Assembly: GCA_028283655.1 (NCBI GenBank)
Contig: JAPWKE010000003.1
Coordinates: 1,736,001 to 1,800,000, forward strand
Length of the DNA stretch: 64,000 nt
Origin: Acidobacteriaceae bacterium
Lineage (GTDB): Bacteria; Acidobacteriota; Terriglobia; Terriglobales; Acidobacteriaceae
Direction of reading: 5' to 3'
Part shown: positions 21,305-33,459 of the stretch, piece by piece
Position numbering within the stretch: position 1 is the first letter of the stretch
How the letters are laid out: the number at the start of each line of letters is the position of its first letter
The notes under the pieces: generated by a model
What the model saw: only the letters and a program-made list of their open reading frames with translations
What the model was told of the DNA's origin: nothing
Databases searched by the model: none
Position numbers and translations under genes: made by a program

Positions 21305-21364
21305 AAGTTGTTGATTTTGTTGTCATCCCAGACGGGATTTGAACCCGCGTTACCGCCGTGAAAG
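21305..21364 (-). repeat. tRNA-Glu-derived attachment repeat, copy 2 (left end of satellite)
   Basis: On the minus strand it reads CTTTCACGGCGGTAACGCGG, then GTTCAAATCCCG. This is the 3' half of a tRNA-Glu from the TTC anticodon loop through the T-arm, with a degraded acceptor end. The tRNA 5' half is absent to the right. It matches 31425-31484 over about 60 bp, including the non-tRNA flank AAGTTGTTGATTTT. Taken as the left boundary of the integrase-bearing element. Confidence 0.75.
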
Positions 21365-21530
21365 AATGATACGCAGCGCCAAAGGGGACATGCAACCAAG
21401 ACCCAATAAAACGATATGGCGCAGTCAATACAAGCATTTGGAGCCATCTCAATGGTTTTTCACTTCCACTCGTTTTCGCTTGCATTCGCACCCCTATATT
21501 CGGTATCTATTCGGTACGGAGATTTCCCCA

Positions 21531-22913
21531 ATGCCCCGAGTATCCGAACACTCTGCAACCGAACTAGGTAGCCGCACTGCCCGCCAGCGTCTTCCGATCC
21601 GTCGCAATCCGTACTTTGCTCATCTCGACAATGGCTTGTCGCTCGGCTATCGCCGCGCTTCGACCGGAGGAACATGGGTCGCCCGGCGCGTCTCTCAGTC
21701 GAAAGTCGAAGCTGGCGCTATCGGCAGCGCTCGCTACGAGGAACACGCGCTCGGAGCCGCGAACGATGCAATAGAGAGCGTCGGCATGAGCTTCCAGCAG
21801 GCCAAGAAGGAAGCAGAAGACTGGTTGGCCGGGGAAACCCTCAATGAAGCTCACGGAGTCGTCAGAGGCTCTTATTCGGTCGCTGAGGCGATGGAGGACT
21901 ACCTAAAGGAACGCGAGCGCCAGAAGCGTAAGACGCTCTACTCCACGCGCGTCACGGTGAAGGCGCATATCCTGCCCACTCTGGGCAAGATTGAACTCTC
22001 GAAGCTCACGCATGGCCGGGTGAAGGCATGGCGCGATGCGCTGGCCGATGCCGCGCCGCGTGTCCGTAGTGGCTACAAGAAAGAGCGCGTCATGGTTTCG
22101 CGCAACGTCAAAGGCACGATCAAACGCCAATACCGCGAGCGCATCGTGCGTGATGAACACGGCAAGCCCATCCCGCTTGCTCCGTCATTCAAGGAATACG
22201 ATCCGAGCGATATGGACGCTCTACGCAAAGGGCAAGCTACAGCCAACCGCATTCTTGCCATCCTCAAGGCCGGATTGAACCACGCTCACACGGAAACCAA
22301 GCGCGTGGCGACCAAGGCAGCATGGGAGACGGTCAAACCGTTCCGCAAGGTGGACGTGGCGAAGATTCGTTTCCTCACACAAGCGGAGATTAGAAGCCTG
22401 TTGGAGCATTGCGAACCGGCGGATTTCAAGCGTTTGGTGCAAGGTGCATTGTTGACAGGTTGCCGCTATGGTGAGCTTGCACGAATGCGTGTCTCTGACT
22501 TCGACGCGGTGAATCATACCGTGTTCGTAGCCATCAGCAAGAACGGTGAATCACGCCACGTTGAACTGAATGATGAAGGCATCGCGTTCTTCATCGCCCT
22601 AACGGATGGACGCGAACCGCGCGAACATCTCTTCATCAAGGACAACGGCAAAGCATGGGGTAAGTCGGAACAAAAGCCGCTGATGGATGCGGCTTGCGAA
22701 GCGGCTGGGCTGGAAGGCGTGACGTTTCATATCGTCCGTCATTCCTATGCGTCACACTTGGCGATGAACCTAACGCCCATGAGCGTGATTGCTCAACAGT
22801 TAGGACACAAGGACACGCGAGTCACAGAGAAGCACTACGCGCACTTGGGACGGGCATTTGTCCGTGACACCATCAGGACGAACTTGCCTAGCTTTGGCCT
22901 AAGCGCTTCATAG
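21531..22913 (+). CDS. int: Tyrosine site-specific integrase
   Basis: 460 residues from ATG 21531; upstream in-frame codons run into the attachment repeat and look non-coding. The N-terminal part has an arm-binding-like domain. A core-binding SAM-like domain (about 115-170, VAEAMEDYLKERERQKR) follows. The catalytic domain has box I Arg in GALLTGCRYGELARMR, His and Arg in HIVRHSYASHLAM, and LGHKDTRVTEKHYAHLGRAF with the nucleophilic Tyr. It would cut and rejoin DNA at the tRNA-Glu repeat that lies 166 bp upstream. A strong hairpin terminator follows. Confidence 0.93.
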   Translation: MPRVSEHSATELGSRTARQRLPIRRNPYFAHLDNGLSLGYRRASTGGTWVARRVSQSKVEAGAIGSARYEEHALGAANDAIESVGMSFQQAKKEAEDWLAGETLNEAHGVVRGSYSVAEAMEDYLKERERQKRKTLYSTRVTVKAHILPTLGKIELSKLTHGRVKAWRDALADAAPRVRSGYKKERVMVSRNVKGTIKRQYRERIVRDEHGKPIPLAPSFKEYDPSDMDALRKGQATANRILAILKAGLNHAHTETKRVATKAAWETVKPFRKVDVAKIRFLTQAEIRSLLEHCEPADFKRLVQGALLTGCRYGELARMRVSDFDAVNHTVFVAISKNGESRHVELNDEGIAFFIALTDGREPREHLFIKDNGKAWGKSEQKPLMDAACEAAGLEGVTFHIVRHSYASHLAMNLTPMSVIAQQLGHKDTRVTEKHYAHLGRAFVRDTIRTNLPSFGLSAS

Positions 22914-22961
22914 CCAGCGGTACGGGTATGTCCGCATATAGCAACTTCATATAGTGATGAC

Positions 22962-22988
22962 AAAGCCATGCTTTCGAGCATGGCTTTT
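22962..22988 (+). terminator. Integrase terminator
   Basis: Perfect 11-bp stem AAAGCCATGCT / AGCATGGCTTT with a stable TTCG tetraloop and a trailing T-run, 49 bp after the integrase stop. The A-tract in front makes it potentially bidirectional. Confidence 0.88.
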
Positions 22989-23111
22989 CTGCGTCTATAC
23001 GCATTTGCAGAATCGCTGAAACGACAACAAAACGATTCCTGCCCATTGGGTCGTCATGCTTTTTACAGCGCGACCAATGCGGAAACGCGGCCCTCCCCCG
23101 GTTCCCACGAT

Positions 23112-23334
23112 CCGAAGATGACACACGTTCTCTATTACCCTGTACCTTCAGCATCTTCGGTATCTTCGAACATACCCAAGCCTCGAAGATGCCCAAAAGA
23201 AGATACTCATAAAACCCCTTGTTATTTACGAAGATACTCAAGATAACTTGTAATACGGAAGCGTCTCAAAACGACCCCTCAGAGCAGCCTCGAAGATGCC
23301 CAAGCACGACCGCCCGGCCTGCGAAGATGCCCAA
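23112..23334. repeat. Iteron-like array, putative replication origin of the satellite
   Basis: At least eight copies of a GAAGATR-centred motif. Best copies CGAAGATGCCCAA at 23184-23196, 23291-23303 and 23322-23334; CGAAGATACTCA at 23229-23240; GAAGATACTCA at 23199-23209; CGAAGATGAC at 23113-23122; inverted copies at 23151-23159 and 23161-23168. Consensus CGAAGATRCYCAA. The array lies between the integrase terminator and the 3' end of the PrimPol-ATPase gene. Directly repeated sites next to a replicase gene are typical of Rep-bound origins. Confidence 0.65.
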
Positions 23335-23336
23335 CC

Positions 23337-25397
23337 TCACTGAATGTACGGAATCGCCGGAACAACCGGTATCTGCAATTTCAGCAGGTCATTAGGCAGT
23401 TGCCAATGCCAGCCACCGGCCATGCCATTCTTGCGTGGCTCAATGCCTAGCTTGTCCTTCGCACGTCGCAGCGTGTTTGCAGAGATGCTGTGAAGTTCTC
23501 GCGCATGTTCCATTAGCTCCCTCTGCGGGACAGGACCATGCGCCAGCGATTCGAGCAGGAAGCGTTCGGCCTTGCCCAGCTGCGTGTTGTCCTTCGATAG
23601 CCCTTCCTCGACCTCTGCCAGAATGGAGCGGGACGAACCTTCCAGCGCATCGCCCCAGACTATGCGCGATGCAGTGATCCCGTTAGCCAATGCCACCTGT
23701 TCGATGATGTAACTGAAGCCCCCTGTGTCTGGACTATTGTTCGACTTGGCGCGAGTGAATACACGCCTGTCAGAATCCTCTTCCTTTGCCGCTGCCCAAA
23801 CCATGCGAGCGAACGCGGCGAACGCCTGCGAGCCAATCACACGATCCGCCGAGTTGCGGCCTGCCGTTCCCTTGGCGAAGTGCGTGATGCCGAGGACGGC
23901 GCAATTCATTTCGGCGGCGAAGTCCACAATCGTTTGCAATCCGCGTCGTACATCATTGGCTTTGTGCATGTCGCCTTGTACCGCCGTCACAATCGGGTCA
24001 ATGATGAGAAGCGACACGCCGCCTATACTGGCAACTGCCGAGCGCAAGGCGTCAATGTCGCAGGATGGATCGAACGCTTGGCGCTGGCCATTCTCATCTA
24101 CGGCACCAGAAATAATGCTGCAACGTGCGCTGTCTGCTCCCATCGCCATGAGGCGCGGCTTGATCGTGTCTGCCGGGTCATCCTCACTACTCCAGATGAT
24201 TACGTTCCCGTGGCGATTGCACAGCGTTCCATCTGGCCACTGTCCAGCCGTCGCGATGGTCGCGGCGAGGCTAAACGCGATGGTCGATTTCCCTGTACCG
24301 CCGTCACCAGCCAAGAGTGTGAGCTTGCCTTTCGGCAGGTAACCATCCCATAGCCATTCGATTGGTTTGGCTTCGATCTCCGCCATGCTGGTGAGTTCTA
24401 CGCCCCGTTTCGTCCTGGCCTTGTCCTTGCCCTGCTTCAATGGGACGGAATCAATGCCGCTCAGGTCGATCCCTGATCCTCCCTGCGACGGCAGAGCGCG
24501 AGGCTTGCCGATACCGGCATTGATCCCGCTTTTGATGGTGGCGCGTGTCTGCGCTTCGCCATGCTTCGATACATGGCCATTCGCAATGCTGGCTTCGAAC
24601 AGCGCATTGGCTACGGCGGCAAGATCAAGCGAGCCATTACCGATGATCGTCCCCATGCTATGAGCGGCTGTGTTGAGTGCCGCGTTGCGACCATTGCCGG
24701 GTTTAAGCATAGACAATCTCGTTACTTCTGCCTGCAATGCGGCGCTGGCATACTCTCGGTCGCTATCGCTAATTTCGATCATGCCCGCTTTCTGTTCCTC
24801 AGACGCCGCAAGAGGCGTCGGGGGTATCGCGGCAACCTCTGCCCCCAGCAACGCAGCAGCGGACGCAACAAAGGCCGCTACAGCTTCAGGGGTGACGACC
24901 GGAGCCTTGGAAAGTGGGAACGTAGAAGGATCGTGTCCACCTTCCCATTCGTAAGGCACTCCGCTTGTATGGTTGCCGAAGGCCACGAACTGCTGACCGT
25001 AGCCAAGGATTTCGACCTTACCCATATCGCTATTGATCGTCTGCTTACGCGGCTCGCCCTCAGCCGCTCGGTATAGCAGCAAGCAACGCGCACTGTTAGC
25101 ACGGGTGCGCCGTGGAGCTAGGCCGAGATGCTGACGCGCAAGCGTTAGGATGCTGGCGGCAATGGTTGGATCGTCTGCATCTATGTCCACGACGACCAAA
25201 CCATCACACAAGATGCCGGTAGAGAGCGCCTGTGCATTTGGCCATTGATTAGCAGCTTCAGGAACGGGCTGACGCGCTCTCGCAACCCAACCCATTCCCA
25301 TAGGCCGCTTGTCATCGGTAATGACAGCGATTGGACGAAAGCCGTTCGCCCAAAGCCGCTTTCGTAGTGTGTCTACAACAAAGGGACTGCTTGCCAT
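23337..25397 (-). CDS. PrimPol domain plus RepA/RecA-like ATPase (satellite replicase)
   Basis: 686 residues. The N-terminal PrimPol (bifunctional primase/polymerase) domain covers about 5-180, with LVVVDIDADDP as the metal-binding acidic motif and a downstream GKVEILGYGQQFVAFGNH. A RecA/RepA-type ATPase (about 340-560) has Walker A LLAGDGGTGKSTIAF near residue 360 and Walker B LLIIDPIVTAV near 470. A C-terminal winged-helix-like part (about 610-675; SANTLRRAKDKLGIEPRKNG) follows. It likely primes and unwinds at the adjacent repeat array. Phage satellites and integrative plasmids carry the same primase-helicase class. Two bases separate it from the upstream gene. Confidence 0.85.
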   Translation of the reverse strand: MASSPFVVDTLRKRLWANGFRPIAVITDDKRPMGMGWVARARQPVPEAANQWPNAQALSTGILCDGLVVVDIDADDPTIAASILTLARQHLGLAPRRTRANSARCLLLYRAAEGEPRKQTINSDMGKVEILGYGQQFVAFGNHTSGVPYEWEGGHDPSTFPLSKAPVVTPEAVAAFVASAAALLGAEVAAIPPTPLAASEEQKAGMIEISDSDREYASAALQAEVTRLSMLKPGNGRNAALNTAAHSMGTIIGNGSLDLAAVANALFEASIANGHVSKHGEAQTRATIKSGINAGIGKPRALPSQGGSGIDLSGIDSVPLKQGKDKARTKRGVELTSMAEIEAKPIEWLWDGYLPKGKLTLLAGDGGTGKSTIAFSLAATIATAGQWPDGTLCNRHGNVIIWSSEDDPADTIKPRLMAMGADSARCSIISGAVDENGQRQAFDPSCDIDALRSAVASIGGVSLLIIDPIVTAVQGDMHKANDVRRGLQTIVDFAAEMNCAVLGITHFAKGTAGRNSADRVIGSQAFAAFARMVWAAAKEEDSDRRVFTRAKSNNSPDTGGFSYIIEQVALANGITASRIVWGDALEGSSRSILAEVEEGLSKDNTQLGKAERFLLESLAHGPVPQRELMEHARELHSISANTLRRAKDKLGIEPRKNGMAGGWHWQLPNDLLKLQIPVVPAIPYIQ

Positions 25398-25399
25398 GA

Positions 25400-25825
25400 T
25401 TAGTGAACCATGTCCTTATCTGAAGTGCCTTGCTTCTGCCCAAGCTCGAACATCATCCACTCGCCAACGTCGATACCTTCGCGGCGAGATTGCTCTGTAA
25501 GCACCTGCCCGATTTCTTCATCGCTTGATAGCTTCTCGCTCCAAAAGCGTCTGCCACGGTAAACAGGGATTGCCAAATGGGTAGCAGCCAACACCTGAAT
25601 GACTAGGACATGGAGAACGGGAACGCCCAACCATTCGCCAATGCTCAGTTGCAAGTCGAACTCATCGGGGATCGCTTCGCGCAGATGCAGACGGCGGCGC
25701 GGGTTGGCTTTGAAGAACTCGGCATCACGCCGTTGTGCTTCGCGGTTTTGCTTGCTGGGCGAATCAACGCGCAGTGCGTTCAGGCTGAAGAGCGGGGGGC
25801 AGAGTTTATAAACGTCGTCAATCAT
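25400..25825 (-). CDS. Hypothetical protein of the satellite replication operon
   Basis: 141 residues, no family recognised. It has a basic stretch near 25-50 (KQNREAQRRDAEFFKANPRRR), a hydrophobic patch LGVPVLHVLVIQVLAATHLA, and an acidic C-terminal half (SDEEIGQVLTEQSRREGIDVGE). It ends 2 bp before the PrimPol-ATPase start and follows the AlpA-like gene by 29 bp, so the three probably form one transcript. Confidence 0.6.
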   Translation of the reverse strand: MIDDVYKLCPPLFSLNALRVDSPSKQNREAQRRDAEFFKANPRRRLHLREAIPDEFDLQLSIGEWLGVPVLHVLVIQVLAATHLAIPVYRGRRFWSEKLSSDEEIGQVLTEQSRREGIDVGEWMMFELGQKQGTSDKDMVH

Positions 25826-25854
25826 GGCGTGTCCTTATGAGTGGTCTGGTGTAG

Positions 25855-26070
25855 TTACTGCTTGGCTGTGAGTTGTCCGGTTGGTTGGCTGGTTATGAAG
25901 TTCCGCAAACTGGCGTAGTCCACTAACCGGCGTTTGCCGAGTTTGTAAGAAGCCACGCTTCCATCTGCCAGCAATTCATAGAAGAATGTCTGGCCGATGC
26001 CCGTTAGCTTCAATGCCTCTTCAACCGTGATGGTTATTGGCGTTTTGATATGGCTTGCTAGGTGATTCAT
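25855..26070 (-). CDS. AlpA/excisionase-like helix-turn-helix protein
   Basis: 71 residues from the ATG at 26070; an upstream in-frame extension lacks coding character. The MerR-type excisionase fold reads TITVEEALKLTGIGQTFFYE, then LLADGSVASYKLGKRRLVDY with the wing, and ends in a short Gln/Thr tail. Such proteins direct excision or activate the replication operon in phage satellites. It is the first gene of the minus-strand replication operon and is divergent from 26201. Confidence 0.82.
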   Translation of the reverse strand: MNHLASHIKTPITITVEEALKLTGIGQTFFYELLADGSVASYKLGKRRLVDYASLRNFITSQPTGQLTAKQ

Positions 26071-26200
26071 GCTGTAACTCCGTAGGGTTTCGAGTCCGTC
26101 CGTAGAGGACTTGGGCGACGGTAACGGCACCCTCAAAATATGTCAACATTTTTCTTGCAGAAAATTTGCACTTGGGTTATTTTGCAGTCGGGAGATACCG
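26071..26200. promoter_or_regulatory. Divergent control region between alpA-like and RHH-like genes
   Basis: A 130-bp AT-richer stretch than its surroundings. It contains TGCAGAAAATTTGCA (26156-26170), a partial inverted repeat, and a related TTTTGCAG near 26180. It must carry promoters in both directions. The symmetric site is a candidate operator for either flanking small DNA-binding protein; no direct evidence for which. Confidence 0.45.
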
Positions 26201-26701
26201 ATGAAAGAGAACAGCACCAAGCCAACACGCTCAGAAAACCTCAACATCCGCTTTGAACCAAGGCTTCGCTACTTAGCAGGGATCGCAGCACGGCAAGAGC
26301 GCCGAACGCTCTCAAACCTGATTGAAGCCGCCGTTGCCACCCATCTCGATTCAGTTCGCATTGCCGGAGGCGGCAAGCAAGTCGCACTCATGGATATAGC
26401 TAAGGAACTGTGGTCGATCCATGAGGCCGAACGCTTCATCGCGCTTGCAGAGAGGCTTCCGTTCCTTCTGACCTTCGAAGAAGAAGAGCTATTCGAGTTG
26501 ATTCAGCAGAGCAAGGAATATCAAAGCGGCGATTACGCGGGTGTACAAAACCGCTTCGCAACGTTGCAGGAACAGGCAGCGAAGAACGCCGCGAACAAAC
26601 CCACAGTGTCCGTCGGCGGTTTTCCGTACCGTGGCGGTCGCATAGACGGCAGCATCCCCGAAGCAATCACCCAACCTAAGCGAAAGAAGGCGACGAAATG
26701 A
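26201..26701 (+). CDS. Ribbon-helix-helix-like protein, satellite
   Basis: 166 residues from ATG 26201, with GGGAG just upstream. Residues about 12-50 (SENLNIRFEPRLRYLAGIAA, then RRTLSNLIEAAVATHL) have the strand-helix-helix pattern of Arc/CopG-like DNA-binding proteins. An acidic middle (LLTFEEEELFELIQQSKEY) and a basic tail (PKRKKATK) follow. It could regulate the divergent replication operon. Its stop overlaps the next gene by 4 bp. Confidence 0.62.
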   Translation: MKENSTKPTRSENLNIRFEPRLRYLAGIAARQERRTLSNLIEAAVATHLDSVRIAGGGKQVALMDIAKELWSIHEAERFIALAERLPFLLTFEEEELFELIQQSKEYQSGDYAGVQNRFATLQEQAAKNAANKPTVSVGGFPYRGGRIDGSIPEAITQPKRKKATK

Positions 26702-27255
26702 GCCAACAGACAGAACCAACCATCGAGAGCTTGCAAGCTGAATTGACCAAGCTCCGCGAAACCAACGCGGACTTGCTCCGTGCCAAGCATGAGCGTGGCG
26801 AGAAGATAAAGGCGCTAGTCGCTGAACTCGACACAAGCAAGGCCAGCCTTACGACCGCACAGGCGACCATCCACGAGATGACGGTCGGCCTTCCATTGAA
26901 AGAGTTGGCTTCTGAGTCCAGTGCAACTCCCGGCCTTTGGCTTTCAGCGTTCAACGCTGCGTTCAAGGCCGAAATGAAGGATGGGCGTCTGGTATTGCTC
27001 AATCAAGCTGGTGAGCCAGTACAGGCCAAGGATGGGAAGGAAGTCACGCCGGAATGGTCGAGTCTGAGCAAGCATCTTGCTACTTCTGACGATGCTTCTC
27101 TGAAGGAACTAGCGTCAATCACTCGCATCAGCAAAGCCTCTGGCGGGGGCGCGGGGAGCACAGGACACTCGACGAGCCACCAGAGCGCAGCGGACGCGCC
27201 ACAAGCCCCTGCGAAGCCCGCGATGAGCTTCGGGCTTCGCTCTACCAACCGCTGA
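26698..27255 (+). CDS. Coiled-coil protein, possible scaffold or packaging factor
   Basis: 185 residues. The N-terminal coiled coil (about 8-62; ESLQAELTKLRETNADLLRA) is followed by a compact domain (about 70-140; PGLWLSAFNAAFKAEMKDGR) and a low-complexity Gly/Ser/Ala/Pro tail. The shape resembles phage scaffolding proteins or replication-accessory proteins, but no family is recognised. It is coupled to the preceding gene by ATGA. Its 3' end overlaps the convergent large terminase gene by 14 bp. Confidence 0.55.
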   Translation: MSQQTEPTIESLQAELTKLRETNADLLRAKHERGEKIKALVAELDTSKASLTTAQATIHEMTVGLPLKELASESSATPGLWLSAFNAAFKAEMKDGRLVLLNQAGEPVQAKDGKEVTPEWSSLSKHLATSDDASLKELASITRISKASGGGAGSTGHSTSHQSAADAPQAPAKPAMSFGLRSTNR

Positions 27256-28642
27256 AACTCACCGCCACTTCACGCGCTATGGTCTGCCCCAAGATTCCGT
27301 AGCGCGTGGCGTCGGCGGCATGATCCGGCGCAGACGAATCCAAATCTTCAACTCGCTTTATGTCATACGGCAGGCTAGGAACAGTTTGCCACCAATACCT
27401 GCAAGCTCGACTGATATACAAGCCGGGTTTATCGAGCTTGCCAGCATCGGCCAACAGCCGTTTCATCTTCAGCCAGCCTTGTATGCGGTCGCCTTTCTGG
27501 GCAGGTGTTAGGTATATGCCGGAAGCTCGGAACTCATCTGCGATGCTGCCTTTGGATGAACCTGTTTTAGCGAACATGGCATCGTCACCAAAGCCGTAGG
27601 GCGCACACTTCCATCTGTCACATATCTCGATCTTGATTGCCTCGGCAAGCTGGGTCGCGTTCCAGCCTAGACCTTGGCTCAGATTGCCGGGCTTGTTTGT
27701 TGCGAACTCATCTACCAAGATCAATGAACCGCGCGAGTACCACTTGCCCTCGTACATGTCGCCGGGGGAACGCGCGACTAGGTATGTAACGCTGGGTGCA
27801 GCGCTTCCAAAGTCATGCGCGATGTAACTTTCCCAGCCGTCGGGAAGCTCTTTCCAAGGATCTACGGCGTTTCGCTCTTCAGACAGGCAGCTTGCAAAAT
27901 ACGCGCCTCTGTTGATTGCCCAATCACCATCCACCCACGCTCTCAAAAGTTCTGGATCGTCCGGGCATGAACTTTCCAGTTGGTCGCGGTACTGCTTGCG
28001 GTCAATCATGTTGTTTGCTGAGAAGGTAGATGGACAGTAGACCCATTGCCGCTTGCTCTTGCTCTCTAGGAACGGTTCCCAAGGTGCTGCTTGGAAGACG
28101 TACCTTGCCGCTAGCCATGAATGGCCAGCGCCGCCGGGGTTTGCAGCAATCACCATGCGAATGGGTATTTTCTTATAGCCGCGCAGGTTTGAGCGCATCA
28201 TGTCCAATAGCGAAGGGTCGCTATACTGGCCGGCTTCATCGACCATAAGCAAGGTGAAGCTGCGGCCTTGGTACTTGGTATAGTCTGCTGGCGTTTCAAG
28301 TTGGCCAAGCTCCATGTAACCGCCGTTCGGGAACCTCCAGACGTGTTCGGCAGCGTTGTACTTGGCAGCCGTTCCATAGACCATCCCAAATAGCTCGCGC
28401 GTCACCAACTCGAAATCGGCCAAGCCCTTGTAGCTCTTGCGAAGATAGAGAATTCTCGCGCGGTCGCCGTACTGCTCGACATGCCGAAGGGCTAGGTATG
28501 CGAGCGCCCAGCTTTTGCCACCGCCACGCCCACCGCCAAGGAACACGTCGAAGTCTTCCGGCACGGCCATCAGCCTAGCTTGGAAGTCGTTTAGCTGTAG
28601 CTCTTGCGTCTCCATCTTCGATGCTCCCTTCCATCGTGCCAA
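27242..28642 (-). CDS. terL: Phage terminase large subunit
   Basis: 466 residues. The N-terminal packaging ATPase has Walker A GGGRGGGKSWALAYLA near residue 34, Walker B LLMVDEAGQYSD near 131, and a coupling-motif-like IAANPGG. The C-terminal nuclease domain has acidic residues in IAHDFG, LVDEFA and FGDDAMFAKTG. It forms the DNA-packaging motor with the small subunit encoded just upstream (68-bp overlap, so the true start may be the internal Met 27 bp later). Length is normal for the family, arguing against decay. Confidence 0.9.
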   Translation of the reverse strand: MARWKGASKMETQELQLNDFQARLMAVPEDFDVFLGGGRGGGKSWALAYLALRHVEQYGDRARILYLRKSYKGLADFELVTRELFGMVYGTAAKYNAAEHVWRFPNGGYMELGQLETPADYTKYQGRSFTLLMVDEAGQYSDPSLLDMMRSNLRGYKKIPIRMVIAANPGGAGHSWLAARYVFQAAPWEPFLESKSKRQWVYCPSTFSANNMIDRKQYRDQLESSCPDDPELLRAWVDGDWAINRGAYFASCLSEERNAVDPWKELPDGWESYIAHDFGSAAPSVTYLVARSPGDMYEGKWYSRGSLILVDEFATNKPGNLSQGLGWNATQLAEAIKIEICDRWKCAPYGFGDDAMFAKTGSSKGSIADEFRASGIYLTPAQKGDRIQGWLKMKRLLADAGKLDKPGLYISRACRYWWQTVPSLPYDIKRVEDLDSSAPDHAADATRYGILGQTIAREVAVSFSGW

Positions 28643-29015
28643 CCACGACCCCGCTTGCCCTGTAATCCGTGGACTTCATCGCACCCGGCAGGTTGAACAC
28701 GATGGCGACCTTGTTTGATTGGTCGCTTTGATCGCCTTCCCTGTAGCCATGCCGCGACTTGAGCAGGAAGATGGACGCCACGGTATCGCCCTTTTCAATC
28801 GCTCGCTTGTACAGAGCGTTATGCAGAGCCTGGCGCTCATCCTCACGCCCAGCGTTGAAAGACTCTTGCATTTCCCCGTCTTCTTCCATCCACCGATTCA
28901 GCGTAGGAAGCGACACGCCGAAGTGCTGCGCTACGCCTTGCTTTGTGAAGCCGCAAGCGGCGAGCGTTCGAACTTCTGCGCCTATGTTTCGCGGGGCTGG
29001 TTTGATGGCACCCAT
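28575..29015 (-). CDS. terS: Phage terminase small subunit
   Basis: 146 residues. An N-terminal helix-turn-helix (about 12-42; VRTLAACGFTKQGVAQHFGV, then LPTLNRWM) recognises packaging sites in this family. A helical oligomerisation region (EDERQALHNALYKRAIEKGD) follows, then a disordered C-terminus with GYREGDQSDQSNK and IVFNLPGAM as in many TerS proteins. It sits directly upstream of, and overlaps, terL. In satellites TerS redirects packaging to satellite DNA. Confidence 0.86.
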   Translation of the reverse strand: MGAIKPAPRNIGAEVRTLAACGFTKQGVAQHFGVSLPTLNRWMEEDGEMQESFNAGREDERQALHNALYKRAIEKGDTVASIFLLKSRHGYREGDQSDQSNKVAIVFNLPGAMKSTDYRASGVVVGTMEGSIEDGDARATAKRLPS

Positions 29016-29090
29016 AACGATTGCTCCAAAATGAGGAAGAGCGCGGCCCCGCGCTCTCCCCCTAGTCCCGAGGACGGTCGGGAAACTTGC

Positions 29091-30095
29091 TTACTTGCTG
29101 ATGAGGAAGGCCAGAGGAACGCTCTTGCGCTGGGCGACTACGCGCGTCCAGTGCGCTCCGTTGGCAAGCTCCGCGATGCTCGGGGAATCGCCAACAATCG
29201 CGTTGGCCGTTCCCGTTGCATCGCTCCATGCGAAGCCAAGCGGATGCAAACCGACATTGAACCGGCTATGCAGTACCGACTGGCCACCGCCGTTACCTGC
29301 TGCGGGAGCGCGCCAAAGCTCAGTGCCGAAGCCCGTTCGCGGTTCGCTGGCAGCAAAGCCAACCGCACCATAGCCAAGCAGGATCGTTGTGTAGACGCCA
29401 TTGGCCGGGGTAAGCTCATCGTCTACGATGACGCCCATTCCCTTATAGGTGGCAATCTCCAACCCGTTCTCGCTCGGTTTGAAGAACTCGATATCATTGT
29501 TCTTCAGTGCTTGCGAATAGACATAGCTGTGCATGGCAATCGCTTTGAAGTCGCTCAGGCGGTCGCCCATAGTGATGGCCGTGTCAATGACAGCATCACC
29601 ATTGAACTGCGCTGCTGCGCCTGCATTGCCGGAAATGTCCACGACCATATCGCCAGCGTTGTTCGCGACATTGTTGGCGAGTACGCCTTGCAAGCTCGCG
29701 ATAAGGCGCTTGCTGAACTGACGATCCCAATAGGCCGAAACACGGTCTTGAATTCGTGCCAGCGCATCGCTGCCCGAAAGCTCGCTGGCAAGGCTCATTT
29801 CTGACCATGACTGGTGAAGGAAGGACTTGCGGACGTTCTGCTTGTTCGCCGTGACCTTCTGCGGGGTGCTGAGGATGGTTGGATCGTCGTTCGTGATGTC
29901 CGCTTCCGTGTCGGCAAGGTCTGCCCAGAAAGGCACGGTGAAGCTCTCGGCACCAGCTTGTAGCTGGGCTTCGATGGCTCCGTTGCGCGAGAGAACGCCG
30001 GACTGAAAAAGGGCTGTGTTCACCATGCTGTTCTCGACCTGATAGGCCGTGAACTCTGCGGGAACAACTACGTCAGCAATTTGTACTTGGGGCAT
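29091..30095 (-). CDS. Phage major capsid protein (HK97 fold, Gp13-like)
   Basis: 334 residues from the Met at 30095 (MPQVQIADVVVPAEFTAYQV). The conserved opening continues with SMVNTALFQSGVLSRN and FTVPFWADLADTEADITNDD, which I recognise from the Gp13-like capsid family. The middle has YWDRQFSKRLIASLQGVLAN and IAMHSYVYSQALKNN; the end has GYGAVGFAASEPRTGFGTEL. An N-terminal extension of six codons is unlikely because its start lacks a ribosome site. It assembles the icosahedral shell. No separate protease or decoration gene is seen nearby. Confidence 0.85.
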   Translation of the reverse strand: MPQVQIADVVVPAEFTAYQVENSMVNTALFQSGVLSRNGAIEAQLQAGAESFTVPFWADLADTEADITNDDPTILSTPQKVTANKQNVRKSFLHQSWSEMSLASELSGSDALARIQDRVSAYWDRQFSKRLIASLQGVLANNVANNAGDMVVDISGNAGAAAQFNGDAVIDTAITMGDRLSDFKAIAMHSYVYSQALKNNDIEFFKPSENGLEIATYKGMGVIVDDELTPANGVYTTILLGYGAVGFAASEPRTGFGTELWRAPAAGNGGGQSVLHSRFNVGLHPLGFAWSDATGTANAIVGDSPSIAELANGAHWTRVVAQRKSVPLAFLISK

Positions 30096-30271
30096 AGCAA
30101 AACCTCGAATCAAAGTGATGGTTCTTGATCCGGGTATTGCCGACTGGCTCTAACCCGCTTCGCGACTGCGAAGGGTGACACATGGGAAGAATCGCGCGAC
30201 CGCGCTCTGAGGAAGCTAACGCAGGTCGATTCGCCGTGCAAGCAAAATCAACCCGCGAAAGTATGCGGAAG

Positions 30272-30835
30272 CTATGACCACGGCATAACCGACCTTGAGA
30301 CGCATTTGCAGCCATCTTCTACTCTTGGGCGCGTCCACTTGCCGTTCAAATACATGCCTTTGCTGATTTCGTACTTCTTGCCGTTCGCCGCACGATGGGC
30401 AGCGTCACGCTGCACGTCCGACTCAGAAGGGTTATGAGGATCGTTCATGCACGGAGCCGCGTACATCCAGATGGCGTGAGTGATGCCAAGAGAACCCCGC
30501 CGCTCTTGTTCAATCATGGCCGTAGCCTTGTCATTCAGAGACAAAGCAACCTGCCCGGCTTGCCCGCGTGTCATTCCAGCGATTTCCATTAGCGCTTTAG
30601 AAAGTAGGTGCAAATCTCTTCCCACAGAGACAGAGCGCAAAGCCGCCTGATAAATCGCTTCGACATGCTTCTTTGGCAAGCCGAGCGATTGAACGTTCTT
30701 TCGCAGGTCGCTTTTGACTGTCTCCGTCACCAATGCCGGGTCAAACGCAACCGTCGGGATGGCTTTGAGTTCCTTCCCAGAGTGCTGTTCTTCCGTCTTA
30801 TTGCTGTCAGAAAATAGGCGTCGAAGCCAAGACAC
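30272..30835 (-). CDS. Phage head morphogenesis-like protein (Mu gpF/SPP1 gp7 C-terminal type)
   Basis: 187 residues. A helical N-terminal part (KSDLRKNVQSLGLPKKHVEA; LSKALMEIAGMTRGQAGQVA) is followed by a C-terminal region with CMNDPHNPSESD, GKKYEISKGMYLNGKWTRPR and VEDGCKCVSRSVMP. This Cys-rich ending resembles the minor head proteins that join portal and capsid. It is shorter than typical family members (about 300). First intact gene of the structural block, 176 bp upstream of the capsid gene. Confidence 0.6.
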   Translation of the reverse strand: MSWLRRLFSDSNKTEEQHSGKELKAIPTVAFDPALVTETVKSDLRKNVQSLGLPKKHVEAIYQAALRSVSVGRDLHLLSKALMEIAGMTRGQAGQVALSLNDKATAMIEQERRGSLGITHAIWMYAAPCMNDPHNPSESDVQRDAAHRAANGKKYEISKGMYLNGKWTRPRVEDGCKCVSRSVMPWS

Positions 30836-30861
30836 AGTTCATTCTCCCTTGAGAGTTCATC

Positions 30862-31210
30862 TCAAGATTCCCGCGTGTACCAAAAGCTCAGTGCGAGGAC
30901 AGACGGAGAGCCGACCTCCAGCCTTCGCCAATTTACGAAAGCAGCGCACTCGATCAGCGCCTTATTGCGCCGGGCATCGAACAGCAAAGCTTGCCACGTT
31001 CGCCAACTCAAGCGTGAGAACCTTGCCGGGTTCACAATGAACGTTCGACATGCCATCTTCCGGGGCGTCGAGCGAAGTCATACAGTCGATCCAAGCGTCC
31101 ATGTTCCTGCCATAGAACGCAGGGAAACCGAAGACTTGAGCAAACTCGCTATGAAACGACTCCCAATCTCGTATGTTCTTGCAGTCTAAGGAAACCTTTG
31201 CAATAGTCAC
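30862..31210 (-). pseudogene. Frameshifted barstar-family gene
   Basis: From 31210: MTIAKVSLDCKNIRDWESFH, then FAQVFGFPAFYGRNMDAWID, clearly the barstar fold with the FYGRN motif. The frame stops at a TAA near 30963 after SFAVRCPAQ. A one-base shift restores the family C-terminus, KALIECAAFVNWRRLEVGSP, then VLALSFWY, ending at 30862. Barstars inhibit barnase-type RNases or act as toxin immunities; no partner nuclease gene lies nearby. It is the last gene before the right attachment repeat, a usual place for cargo. Confidence 0.75.
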
Positions 31211-31229
31211 TGCTCAAGCATAGCGTTTG

Positions 31230-31272
31230 CACGATATACGGGTATACCCCGATTGACTTGCTACGCTCGCAC
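31230..31272 (+). repeat. 43-bp element-end repeat, right copy
   Basis: It begins CACGATATACGGG, contains ACCCCGATT and ends ACGCTCGCAC. It aligns gap-free with 20915-20957. It lies 152 bp inside the right attachment repeat of the satellite. Candidate recognition site for recombination or replication. Confidence 0.7.
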
Positions 31273-31424
31273 TGCGGGGTGGGGGTTACGCCGCTTTTGA
31301 GCCTGCTTTGGGGTGTACCGGGGGTTTCGATGGTGGAGTCTGTACGACCCCGCGTGAGCCATCCGAAACTCGATATTCGGTATGTGATTCGGTATGGACT
31401 AAATTCGATACGATTCGCACTCAC

Positions 31425-31484
31425 AAGTTGTTGATTTTATTGGCGTCCCCGACGGGATTCGAACCCGTGTTACCGCCGTGAAAG
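31425..31484 (-). repeat. tRNA-Glu(TTC) 3' half, attachment repeat copy 3 (right end of satellite)
   Basis: The minus strand reads CTTTCACGGCGGTAAC, then T-arm ACGGGTTCGAATCCCGT, then CGGGGACGCCA. This is everything from the Glu anticodon loop (TTC) to an encoded CCA, as in E. coli tRNA-Glu. No matching D-arm or 5' acceptor strand lies to the right, so this is a 3' fragment, not a functional tRNA. It is the best preserved of the three copies. Confidence 0.82.
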
Positions 31485-31534: not shown

Positions 31535-31710
31535 AACGGCAGTTTCGGAGCCCTGAGTAAGCTTTATCGAACCCTTATCGAACCCACGTTCGTGCCCTTC
31601 AGGACGGGGGTTCGTTGCTTTTTGAGGCGCTCGGTCGGAGATGACTCAGCCGCATAGAACCGAAGCTTCATATACTGGTTTTGACGGTATGGTTGTGCCG
31701 AAGATTCGAT

Positions 31711-32967
31711 ATGCGCCTTGAAGAACAAGTCAATCCGGCGATCCTTGTATGGGCACGTGAGTCTGCGGGCCTAGACGTGCAGGATGCTGCGAAGAAGCTC
31801 GCACTCGGCGATTCCAAGGAGGCGAGCGGGACGGACAAGCTCCTCGAGCTGGAACGTGGCGCCCGGCGTCCTACGCGAACGCAGCTCAACAAAATAGCGA
31901 AAATCTATCGCCGCCCGCTCCTTGCGTTCTATATGGCTGAACCTCCGAAGAAAGCGCCTCGGGGTGAGGACTTCCGCTCGACCGGCAATGAAGTGAGCGC
32001 AAGGGACAATGCTCTTCTCGATGCGCTTCTCCGTGACCTCAAGGCTCGCCAGGAGATTGTCCGAGACCTCCTCGAAGACCTCGATGAAGCTGCGCCCAAA
32101 GCCTTCGTTGGTTCTTCTCGTCTCACGGAGAGCGCTCAGACGGTGGCAGATCGTGTGTCTGCTCTGCTTCACATCCCCCAAGTTCGTTCGAACTGGGGAA
32201 CAACCCCGGACGAGTATTTCAAAAGGCTCCGTTCGGCGGTGGAGAGCGTGGGGGTCTTTGTACTGCTGACGGGCGATCTCGGCTCGCACCACTCGACCCT
32301 GACCGAAGACGTGTTCCGTGGTTTTGCCGTGGCCGATCCGGTTGCTCCGTTCATTGTCATCAACGATCACGACGCACGCACCGCCCGCTCCTTTACGCTT
32401 GTTCACGAACTCGTACATATCCTGCTGGGCCAGACCGGAGTAAGCGGTACTCCTGAGTCCGTGCGAGACAACTCCGACATCGGTCGTATCGAGCAATTTT
32501 GTAATGATGTTGCAGGACTCGTCCTGCTTCCGACGACATTTGCCGATCGGCGGCCCAGTGAACTGAACAACGGTACGACTCTTGCTGCGTCTCGCTACAT
32601 CGAGACGGTCGCAAAGAACTGGCTTGTGAGTGAGCCGCTTGTCGCTTTTCGCCTGAAGCGTCTTGGCTGGATTTCAACCGGGACATATCGCGAACTCGCA
32701 ACCATCTACGCTAAGCGGTGGGCTTCCGTTAAAGAAAGCACGCGGGCAGCGAATCAGCTCAAAGAAGGTGGTCCTAGCTATTACGTCGTGAAGCAGAGTC
32801 GACTCGGCGAAGCGCTTGTAGACGTCGTACGTCGGACGCTCCGAGAGAACCGCCTGACACATACACGGGCAGCGCGAGTTCTGGGAGTGAAGCCTTCATC
32901 TGTTGAACCGCTGATTCGACGCTATGAGAAGTCATCCCCAGGACTCGTCGCAATGGGGGCTCGCTAA
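31711..32967 (+). CDS. XRE/ImmA-IrrE metallopeptidase-type antitoxin
   Basis: About 418 residues from ATG 31711. An N-terminal HTH_XRE-like region (about 5-65; LDVQDAAKKLALGDSKEASG, LLELERGARRPTRTQLNKIA) is followed by an IrrE/ImmA zinc peptidase core with HExxH in FTLVHELVHILLGQTG near residue 231. A late helical domain (LTHTRAARVLGVKPSSVEPL) resembles a second DNA-binding element. The gene lies 3 bp upstream of a PIN-domain gene. That pairing is a known type II toxin-antitoxin arrangement (XRE-COG2856 with DUF4411). Inference: it represses its operon and neutralises the PIN nuclease. Confidence 0.85.
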   Translation: MRLEEQVNPAILVWARESAGLDVQDAAKKLALGDSKEASGTDKLLELERGARRPTRTQLNKIAKIYRRPLLAFYMAEPPKKAPRGEDFRSTGNEVSARDNALLDALLRDLKARQEIVRDLLEDLDEAAPKAFVGSSRLTESAQTVADRVSALLHIPQVRSNWGTTPDEYFKRLRSAVESVGVFVLLTGDLGSHHSTLTEDVFRGFAVADPVAPFIVINDHDARTARSFTLVHELVHILLGQTGVSGTPESVRDNSDIGRIEQFCNDVAGLVLLPTTFADRRPSELNNGTTLAASRYIETVAKNWLVSEPLVAFRLKRLGWISTGTYRELATIYAKRWASVKESTRAANQLKEGGPSYYVVKQSRLGEALVDVVRRTLRENRLTHTRAARVLGVKPSSVEPLIRRYEKSSPGLVAMGAR

Positions 32968-32970
32968 ACC

Positions 32971-33459
32971 TTGCTCTACCTGCTCGACGCAAACGTCCTA
33001 ATCCGTGCCCACGAAGACTACTATCCAATCGATCGGATTCCCCAGTTCTGGACCTGGCTACAAGCTCAGGGAGACAGTGGCACAGTCAAAGTCCCATATG
33101 AGATTTATAACGAAATTGCGGTTTCTGTTGGTCTGCTCCATGATTGGCTCACGGATTCGAATGTCTCTGCGAGTATGCTGCTTCAGCAACAAACCAATCC
33201 CGTACATCTCAATTCTGTGATTGCCAACGGGTATGCGCCTGACCTCAATGACTCTGAAATCGAGGAGATTGGGCAAGATCCCTTCTTAATCGCATATGCA
33301 TATGCCGATCCAAGTGGGATCACCGTTGTATCGCGCGAAGTATCGGCACCAAGCAAGCAGCGTGCGAACCGTCGCGTTCCAGATGTTTGCAAAGCCTTCG
33401 GAGTTCGTTGTCTCAGCGACTTCGAGTTCCTGCGGGAACTCAACTTCAAGATCGTCTGA
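32971..33459 (+). CDS. DUF4411 PIN-domain ribonuclease-type toxin
   Basis: 162 residues starting at TTG. It opens LYLLDANVLIRAHEDYYPID, with the first PIN acidic residue in LLDANV. Further acidic residues are in YEIYNEIA, DPFLIAYA and VVSREVS, and the ending RRVPDVCKAFGVRCLSDFEF is typical of DUF4411. It would cleave RNA when not held by its antitoxin. Tight coupling to the ImmA-like gene (3 bp gap) supports a toxin-antitoxin pair. Confidence 0.84.
   Translation: MLYLLDANVLIRAHEDYYPIDRIPQFWTWLQAQGDSGTVKVPYEIYNEIAVSVGLLHDWLTDSNVSASMLLQQQTNPVHLNSVIANGYAPDLNDSEIEEIGQDPFLIAYAYADPSGITVVSREVSAPSKQRANRRVPDVCKAFGVRCLSDFEFLRELNFKIV

What the first reader, a model, noticed from the sequence alone, without database searches (positions are those of the whole stretch)
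21305..31484. Candidate capsid-forming phage satellite in an acidobacterial-type genome
Seen: direct tRNA-Glu repeats bound a 10.2-kb unit holding integrase, PrimPol-ATPase, AlpA-like HTH, TerS, TerL, capsid protein and a head-morphogenesis-like protein. Known: capsid-forming PICIs combine int, alpA, primase-replicase with their own capsid and packaging genes and borrow tails from a helper phage. Inference: this is such a satellite, or a very reduced prophage. The host lineage would be new for this class as far as I know. The gene orientation (TerL convergent with an RHH/coiled-coil pair) does not match layouts I can recall.
Basis: partly seen in the sequence, partly recalled or inferred. Interest (0 to 1): 0.85.

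Follow-up and report, generated by a model that had tools for sequence, protein, structure and literature searches.

The report
Phage satellite with borrowed portal
A 10-kb genetic parasite of bacterial viruses carries genes for its own virus shell, shell scaffold and DNA-packaging motor but none recognisable for the portal ring through which DNA must enter, so it probably borrows that ring and the tail from a helper virus; relatives of similar size sit in distantly related bacteria.

Summary
A 10.1-kb island lies between two 60-bp copies of a tRNA-Glu 3' end. Correction: neither repeat is a whole tRNA; the intact tRNA-Glu is 114 kb to the right.

It does not look like a broken prophage and fails the cf-PICI definition. 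It belongs to a family in Acidobacteriota and Proteobacteria whose capsid proteins form one clade (support 100/99). In 22 members with both ends, the element is 9.5-11.3 kb (nearer repeat taken in three ambiguous cases). dN/dS is 0.05-0.14. A C-terminal [F/L/Y]G[L/I/M/F] scaffold motif is in 31 of 31 satellite scaffolds and 0 of 66 phage scaffolds.

The striking feature: no recognisable portal. A profile from six phages rings in 57 of 69 other loci outside the clade and in 0 of 46 within it. The window's island has no unassigned ORF over 117 aa.

Best model: own small shell, scaffold and terminase; portal, connectors and tail from a helper. Mobilisation and helper are untested.

The parts
21305..21364 (.). 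distal att copy: 3' part of tRNA-Glu (diverged copy)
   Evidence: direct repeat, 90% identical to 31425-31484; 1 mismatch to the tRNA 3'-half pattern
21339..22913 (+). tyrosine integrase (ORF; probable start near 21528)
   Evidence: PF00589 9e-26, phrog_1 2e-48; alignments with four of five relatives begin at residue 63-65
22914..23336 (.). candidate replication origin: iterons with core CATCTT(CG), 3' of PrimPol
   Evidence: CATCTT 5 times against 0.3 expected; enriched in the same place in 6 of 6 acidobacterial islands examined
23337..25397 (-). PrimPol-AAA replication protein
   Evidence: PF09250 2e-14, PF13481 2.5e-34
25400..25825 (-). orf141, conserved unknown protein of the acidobacterial members
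   Evidence: 27-40% identity to 5 relatives; no family match
25855..26136 (-). AlpA/excisionase-type HTH protein
   Evidence: TIGR01764 6.8e-9
26111..26701 (+). putative ribbon-helix-helix regulator
   Evidence: relatives in the corresponding place; RHH label is inference, no profile match
26698..27255 (+). head scaffolding protein with satellite-type C-terminal FGLR motif (here followed by STNR)
   Evidence: phrog_206 1.4e-8; homologues immediately upstream of MCP in proteobacterial relatives; motif
27242..28642 (-). terminase large subunit; Walker A (GGGRGGGKS) and several acidic residues invariant in 9 members (motif names recalled)
   Evidence: phrog_2 1.4e-27; alignment A2
28575..29015 (-). 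terminase small subunit
   Evidence: phrog_309 1.5e-17
29091..30113 (-). major capsid protein, SPP1 gp13 type
   Evidence: phrog_247 2.4e-88; PDB 4AN5 4.4e-47 and 6R3A 6.9e-47
30272..30835 (-). MuF/gp7-like minor head protein (accessory)
   Evidence: phrog_324 4e-13; not hit by my own phage MuF profile; no relative of it in the loci searched
30862..31210 (-). Barstar-like gene, split over two frames (accessory)
   Evidence: PF01337 1.5e-15 for the 5' part; no Pfam match for the 3' part alone
31425..31484 (.). tRNA-proximal att copy: 3' part of tRNA-Glu
   Evidence: 0 mismatches to the tRNA 3'-half pattern

Best explanation
The island is a phage satellite that outsources the portal vertex. When a helper phage is active, the AlpA/integrase pair excises it from the tRNA-derived att sites, and PrimPol-ATPase replicates it from the iteron array beside its gene. 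It makes its own SPP1-type shell from its own capsid protein and scaffold, sized for one ~10-kb genome, and its own TerS/TerL bring satellite DNA to the shell. Since a terminase pumps DNA through a portal ring and the element encodes none that I can recognise, the shell must incorporate a helper portal (in this member perhaps aided by its own MuF/gp7-like protein), then helper connectors and tail. Shown by sequence: genes, att sites, family, narrow size range, purifying selection, satellite-specific capsid clade and scaffold motif, lack of a recognisable portal. Inferred: induction, helper identity, small shell, use of the helper portal.
For: Gene content.

Family: 44 loci, some only fragments, in a scan of one genome per species; 6 of 398 genomes of the host's family carry an intact TerL at 61% identity or more, own genome included.

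Size: 22 elements with both ends, mean 10,279, s.d. 475, range 9,513-11,302 bp. In L019, L075 and L095 I took the nearer repeat; their first-ranked repeats give 12.0, 12.9 and 11.4 kb. The 12 elements with repeats of 44 bp or more span 9.5-11.3 kb; the other 10 rest on 15-18 bp.

Portal: a profile from six phages alone hits 57 of 69 non-seed loci outside the capsid clade and 0 of 46 inside it, nor any of 44 further or overlapping satellite loci, at E 0.1. A profile enlarged with IMG/VR loci gives 0 in 48 sources, two of them duplicates, while TerL hits 27 ORFs and capsid 45. Largest unassigned ORFs in the window's island: 117 and 104 aa; of 19 islands inventoried only L070, L071 and L076 hold an unidentified ORF of 300 aa or more that is not antisense to an integrase or replication gene (some integrases named by BLAST kinship only).

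Clade: 100/99. Selection: dN/dS 0.05-0.14 in 19 of 22 pairs, 3 saturated. Motif: 31 of 31 satellite scaffolds (one duplicate) against 0 of 66 phage scaffolds.

SPP1 precedent: gp11 and gp13 alone give normal and smaller procapsids, gp6 is needed for packaging, gp7 binds gp6 (passages of PMC6316719).
Against: No experiment shows excision, particles or a helper. No SPP1_portal (PF05133) match in the host genome, so no resident helper of that type was seen (its control rang in 2 of 14 genomes); phrog_145 also gave nothing but its control did not ring. A very divergent portal could escape a profile, though the window's island has no room for one. Several members depart from the pattern: a head-tail adaptor in L092 and L116; tape-measure-like proteins in L078 and L094 and another TerL type in L078; circular plasmids with capsid and scaffold but no TerL hit. 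TerL is not exclusive to satellites: phage contig L204 has a portal, and its TerL is 58-61% identical to six of seven satellite TerLs compared. The window's MuF-like protein is not hit by my phage MuF profile. The window's own TerL gave no usable dN/dS (saturated).
Confidence: 0.68

Rival explanations
1. It is a cf-PICI in the strict sense, with portal, protease and connectors present but unrecognised.
For: Same general plan: int, AlpA, primase, TerS, TerL, capsid, no tail gene.
Against: Portal profiles 0 of 48 sources and 0 of 46 clade loci; no ORF of portal size left in the window's island; an SPP1-type shell needs no protease (recalled; in line with the minimal set gp6, gp11, gp13 in PMC6316719); capsid family differs from the PF05065 cf-PICIs.
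Confidence: 0.08
2. It is a shrunken, dying prophage.
For: A Barstar-like gene is split over two frames; decayed relatives exist (G061, G352, G103).
Against: Same core set, similar size and tRNA sites in distant taxa; single capsid clade; dN/dS 0.05-0.14; ORFs of int, PrimPol, TerL, TerS, MCP and scaffold are intact.
Confidence: 0.05
3. The satellite's capsid, scaffold and terminase act as weapons: they poison helper assembly or redirect helper heads, and the satellite travels in mixed or helper-built heads.
For: The scaffold C-terminal motif is reminiscent of SaPI CpmB, whose RIIK motif binds the capsid protein as the phage scaffold's does (PMC5644958 passages); no portal of its own.
Against: The window's capsid protein is at most 45% identical to the phage capsids aligned, and the best-ranked phage records reach 42-43%, so co-assembly is doubtful; the narrow genome size suggests a dedicated shell; capsid and TerL are under purifying selection.
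Confidence: 0.14
4. A domesticated gene-transfer agent or defence island using capsid and terminase genes.
For: Lack of tail and lysis genes.
Against: Integrase, att repeats, replication gene with iterons, different tRNA sites, two related copies in one Marinobacter assembly: behaviour of a mobile element.
Confidence: 0.03

Closest known systems
Capsid-forming PICIs (cf-PICI)
   Same: int, AlpA, primase, own TerS/TerL, own capsid protein, no tail
   Different: cf-PICIs also encode portal, protease, connectors and HNH, and average 14 kb; here no recognisable portal or protease, SPP1-type capsid plus scaffold, about 10 kb
Streptomyces satellites MulchRoom/MiniFlayer
   Same: own capsid, scaffold and terminase genes; tail genes not found in the satellite
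SaPI/PICI and P4 (recalled, with passages of PMC5644958 and PMC10690885)
   Same: island of about 10-15 kb with integrase and primase; small-capsid logic
   Different: they remodel helper capsid protein; here the capsid protein is the element's own
Episomal cf-PISP of Vibrio
   Same: satellite-plasmid with own head genes (compare the 8.7-kb plasmids L259 and L260)
   Different: cf-PISP has portal, protease and adapters with a PF05065 capsid (PMC13230959 passages)
Phage SPP1 head module (gp1, gp2, gp6, gp7, gp11, gp13)
   Same: TerS, TerL, scaffold, capsid type and, in the window, a gp7-like MuF protein
   Different: no counterpart of the gp6 portal or the gp15/gp16 head-completion proteins was found; about 10 kb instead of 44 kb

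Membership tests
cf-PICI | integrase, AlpA and primase/replicase | tested here: met
cf-PICI | own major capsid protein with own TerS and TerL | tested here: met
   phrog_247, phrog_309, phrog_2; capsid of another family (SPP1 gp13 type)
cf-PICI | portal protein | tested here: not met
   profiles 0 of 48 sources and 0 of 46 clade loci; no unassigned ORF above 117 aa in the window's island
cf-PICI | head maturation protease | tested here: not met
   no Pfam, PHROG or NCBIfam protease match among the window's 10 proteins
cf-PICI | head-tail connectors and HNH nuclease | tested here: not met
   connector profile hits only L092 of 48 sources, plus L116 among the satellite IMG/VR contigs; only a weak HNH-family match (0.012) to TerS among the 10 proteins
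cf-PICI | mobilised by a helper that supplies tails | not testable with these tools
   needs induction and transfer
Phage satellite (general) | compact island with int and att, lacking genes needed for a virion, conserved as a unit across hosts | tested here: met
   22 tRNA-bounded elements of 9.5-11.3 kb; no portal in 48 sources; tail-type genes only as tape-measure-like proteins in L094 and L078
Complete or defective prophage | portal, tail and lysis genes, or the same block inside larger prophages | tested here: not met
   portal and tail-tube profiles silent, no tail or lysis family among the 10 proteins; satellite capsids form one clade apart from phages
SPP1-type capsid proteins | near full-length homology to SPP1 gp13 | tested here: met
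   4AN5 residues 3-312 of 324, E 4.4e-47; 4AN5 named as gp13 in PMC6813328

The most novel reading that the evidence does not exclude
A so far unnamed class of satellites, spread over at least two phyla, splits the phage head at its symmetry mismatch: the element owns shell, scaffold and motor, while the twelve-fold portal and everything below it come from a helper. The satellite scaffold with its C-terminal FGLR motif would nucleate small shells (about T=3 for 10 kb, my estimate) on a foreign portal, and the nearly fixed ~10-kb genome length would be the footprint of that shell.
Probability: 0.5. Interest if true: 0.86.

Novelty: new variant of a known kind. Interest (0 to 1): 0.76.

Why it matters
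In SPP1 the portal most likely starts procapsid assembly and ensures its correct size (PMC6316719 passage). A family that keeps shell, scaffold and motor but drops the portal would make portal nucleation, size control and terminase-portal matching testable with natural parts. It would also put satellites with their own capsids into Acidobacteriota and fill the gap between PICIs, which own few head genes, and cf-PICIs, which own the whole head.

Tried and rejected
A single-sequence capsid query of IMG/VR confirmed nothing; the alignment query did (its list and that were capped at 80 of 81 and 80 of 112 loci). AlphaFold of orf141 gave pLDDT 45, unusable. Solved-structure search with the TerL profile gave nothing at E 0.01; with the scaffold profile only weak matches (best 0.0065), mainly coiled coils and ribosomal L9. 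The 501-521-aa genes beside the scaffold in L075, L079 and L086 looked portal-sized; they match DUF3987 (two, also a PHROG helicase family) or DUF3631 (one), not portals. No match of the Klebsiella-plasmid capsid gene in 20,395 E. coli records. No Rfam match up to E 0.1 in the island. No SPP1-type portal in the host genome (inconclusive). Literature: 9 searches. 'phage satellites' with 'Acidobacteri' gave 0 papers and no portal-less capsid-forming satellite surfaced; subscription journals are not held, and the cf-PICI and SatelliteFinder papers themselves were not seen. Of the papers cited I saw passages only; of PMC12324425 the abstract and outline, of PMC11389934 passages, neither of which describes this family.

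Rejected: 'TerL marks the satellites'. TerL is shared with phage contig L204, and loci with this TerS-TerL but without this capsid exist in the DNA held (L002 and others). Also rejected: counting the enlarged portal profile's 62 of 74 hits outside the clade as a control, because that profile was built partly from those loci; the six-phage profile replaces it.
Full report
WHAT IS THERE. Window 21305-31484 is a 10.1-kb island between two 60-bp direct repeats, 90% identical. The repeats are the 3' part of a tRNA-Glu gene. ARAGORN and Rfam find no tRNA in the window. The intact tRNA-Glu(UUC) is at C3:1881181-1881256 of the same genome, about 114 kb beyond the right repeat. The simplest reading (inference) is that the satellite entered this tRNA and a second, larger element later inserted between the two.

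Reading from the tRNA-proximal end, the genes are: a Barstar-like gene split over two frames, a 187-aa MuF-like protein (phrog_324, 4e-13), the major capsid protein (phrog_247, 2e-88), TerS, TerL, an inverted pair of putative RHH regulator and scaffold, AlpA, orf141, PrimPol-ATPase and integrase. The capsid protein aligns along nearly its whole length with PDB 4AN5 and 6R3A (E 4e-47 and 7e-47), which are SPP1 gp13 structures (PMC6813328 passages). The coiled-coil gene is a scaffold: phrog_206 at 1.4e-8, and its homologues sit directly upstream of the capsid gene in the proteobacterial relatives.

A FAMILY. A search of 396 genomes of the phylum with the capsid protein gave 6 genomes with a match, own included, some only fragments. 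A search of 398 genomes of the family with TerL gave 24 with a match, of which 6 (own included) are intact and at least 61% identical. An alignment query of one genome per species gave 44 loci, among them Terriglobus roseus and Edaphobacter, Pseudomonas, Stutzerimonas, Halomonas and its kin, Marinobacter, Lysobacter, Luteimonas and Rhodobacteraceae; a dozen are fragments. The fuller loci show scaffold, capsid, TerS and TerL side by side, in one of two main orders; the Rhodobacteraceae loci show scaffold and capsid without this TerL. In the alignments the satellite capsids share 51-78% identity with the window's protein and the phage capsids at most 45%. In 50,697 phage records the best-ranked match is 41.8% (30 of 721 listed), or 42.8% with the Pseudomonas member as query (8 of 733 listed). 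For TerL the best-ranked phage record is 32%. In a 94-row tree the 41 satellite capsids, including two from circular plasmids, form one side of a branch with 100/99 support. The 120-row quick tree without those drops shows the same split, with 46 satellite rows at SH-aLRT 100.

SIZE. Copies of the tRNA 3' end bound 22 elements including the window's: mean 10,279 bp, s.d. 475, range 9,513-11,302. In three loci (L019, L075, L095) a higher-ranked repeat would give 12.0, 12.9 and 11.4 kb; I took the nearer one. Ten of the 22 rest on repeats of only 15-18 bp. The 12 with repeats of 44 bp or more span the same range. L083 (ambiguous), L057 and L088 (no tRNA found) were left out. So narrow a spread is what a fixed shell would impose (inference). 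From SPP1's ~45.9 kb in a T=7 shell (PMC6316719 and PMC6813328 passages), volume scaling gives about 13 kb for T=3, less with shell thickness, and about 20 kb for T=4. One 10-kb genome thus suits T=3. This is an estimate, not a result. IMG/VR contig L194 (9,839 bp) has a 47-bp terminal repeat that I read as a tRNA 3' end, and carries scaffold, capsid, TerS and TerL without a portal hit; it is either an excised circle or a repeat-bounded assembly.

NO PORTAL. I built profiles from six phages with this capsid or TerL type and enlarged them with IMG/VR loci. At E 0.1, in 48 sources (the whole window plus 47 loci, two of them duplicates), portal hit 0, MuF 0, head closure 0, tail tube 0, connector 1 (L092) and tape measure 1 (L094), while the TerL profile hit 27 ORFs and the capsid profile 45. 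The MuF profile's silence includes the window's own MuF-like protein, which only PHROGs recognises. As an independent control, the portal profile from the six phages alone hits 57 of 69 other loci outside the satellite clade, a few of them near-copies of seed phages, and 0 of 46 loci of the clade. In the capsid tree 43 of 46 satellite loci show no phage structural gene of the tested kinds, and 3 show a connector or tape-measure hit. In the window's island the largest ORFs not overlapping a named gene are 117 and 104 aa. Portal-sized genes tested elsewhere proved to be DUF3987/DUF3631 proteins, primases, a TerL or tape-measure-like proteins. Of 19 islands inventoried, three keep an unidentified ORF of 300 aa or more that is not antisense to an integrase or replication gene: L070 (413 aa), L071 (354 aa), L076 (387 and 300 aa); two of these were scanned without a Pfam match. 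L057, not inventoried, has an unknown 322-aa protein. Two circular plasmids, 8,725 bp in Moellerella and 8,712 bp in Klebsiella, carry a capsid protein of this clade and a scaffold-like protein upstream of it (recognised by the profile in L259 only), with no portal and no TerL hit.

SIGNATURES OF FUNCTION. dN/dS for capsid, TerL and scaffold is 0.05-0.14 in 19 of 22 pairs; three deeper pairs, two of them with the window's TerL, were saturated. In 31 of 31 satellite scaffolds (one duplicate locus) the protein ends in [F/L/Y]-G-[L/I/M/F]-x; 0 of 66 phage scaffolds have [FLY]G[LMIVF] in their last 14 residues. The two plasmid proteins end in FGLK and LGIK; the window's scaffold has FGLR followed by four more residues. 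The SaPI scaffold CpmB and its helper's scaffold bind capsid protein through a C-terminal RIIK motif (PMC5644958 passages), so a capsid-binding role for FGLR is a fair guess. CATCTT iterons are enriched 3' of PrimPol in 6 of 6 acidobacterial islands examined (4-8 copies against 0.2-0.7 expected), as expected for an origin. Two related elements in one Marinobacter assembly, at different tRNAs, share a 3.7-kb stretch with the packaging genes at 90% while the rest gave no match, so the module can move as a unit.

HOW IT PROBABLY WORKS. In SPP1, gp11 and gp13 without the portal gp6 assemble normal and smaller procapsids; gp6 ensures the size and is needed for packaging; gp7 binds gp6 (PMC6316719 passages). 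The satellites keep counterparts of gp1, gp2, gp11 and gp13 and lack gp6. The window's member also keeps a gp7-like protein. The most economical model is a satellite-made small shell built onto a helper portal, filled by the satellite's terminase and finished with helper connectors and tail. The nearest phage TerL found is that of IMG/VR contig L204 (L203 is identical to it there): 58-61% identical to six of seven satellite TerLs compared and 50% to the seventh, with its own portal and a capsid of another PHROG family; phages of that type are my first helper candidates.

AGAINST. Nothing here shows movement or particles. The host carries no SPP1-type portal gene that I could find. The cassette varies: L078 has another TerL type, and L078 and L094 have tape-measure-like genes; two members add a head-tail adaptor; some loci with this TerS and TerL lack this capsid in the DNA held; and the plasmids lack a recognised TerL. 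IMG/VR contigs are often fragments, so absence of a portal there is weak evidence.

PLACE AMONG KNOWN THINGS. It works like a capsid-forming satellite but fails the cf-PICI definition on portal, protease, connectors, HNH and capsid family. I file it as a new variant of phage satellite. The literature searches listed under Tried and rejected found no description of a portal-less capsid-forming satellite in the open library; subscription papers were not searchable.

Noticed in passing
window 30272-31210: A MuF-like protein without a C-terminal extension lies beside a Barstar-like gene split over two frames. gp7-like (MuF) proteins with fused toxins are known in phages (PMC6316719 passage), so this may be a remnant of a toxin/immunity pair or immunity against a helper's nuclease.
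   Followed up: partly
G000:C3:1767484-1881181 (window 31485 onward): About 114 kb separate the island from the intact tRNA-Glu, suggesting a second, larger tandem element at the same tRNA; its first genes are an IrrE-domain protein and a DUF4411 protein (31681-33459).
   Followed up: no
L259 (NZ_CP093253.1), L260 (CP067839.1): 8.7-kb circular plasmids of Moellerella and Klebsiella carry the satellite capsid and scaffold types without a TerL or portal hit: candidate satellite-plasmids.
   Followed up: partly
L084 and L096: Two satellites in one Marinobacter assembly, at tRNA-Val and tRNA-Ser, share a 3.7-kb packaging stretch at 90% with no match elsewhere.
   Followed up: partly
L078:11554-13035, L094:11131-12807, L010:6727-7647, L200:5019-9137: Tape-measure-like proteins in satellite-like loci: possible control of tail length by the satellite.
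   Followed up: no
L002, L005, L010, L188, L195, L198-L200: Loci with satellite-type TerS and TerL but without this capsid family in the DNA held; L002 looks like a tRNA-adjacent island of about 10.6 kb (my estimate, no att repeat sought).
   Followed up: no
L093:13160-15182: A DNA methylase and a MamI-type restriction enzyme inside the repeat-bounded island: likely defence cargo.
   Followed up: no
L020-L023 (G061, G352, G103): Decayed fragments of the capsid gene, three of the four loci with a tRNA-Glu gene nearby, indicate past visits of the family.
   Followed up: partly
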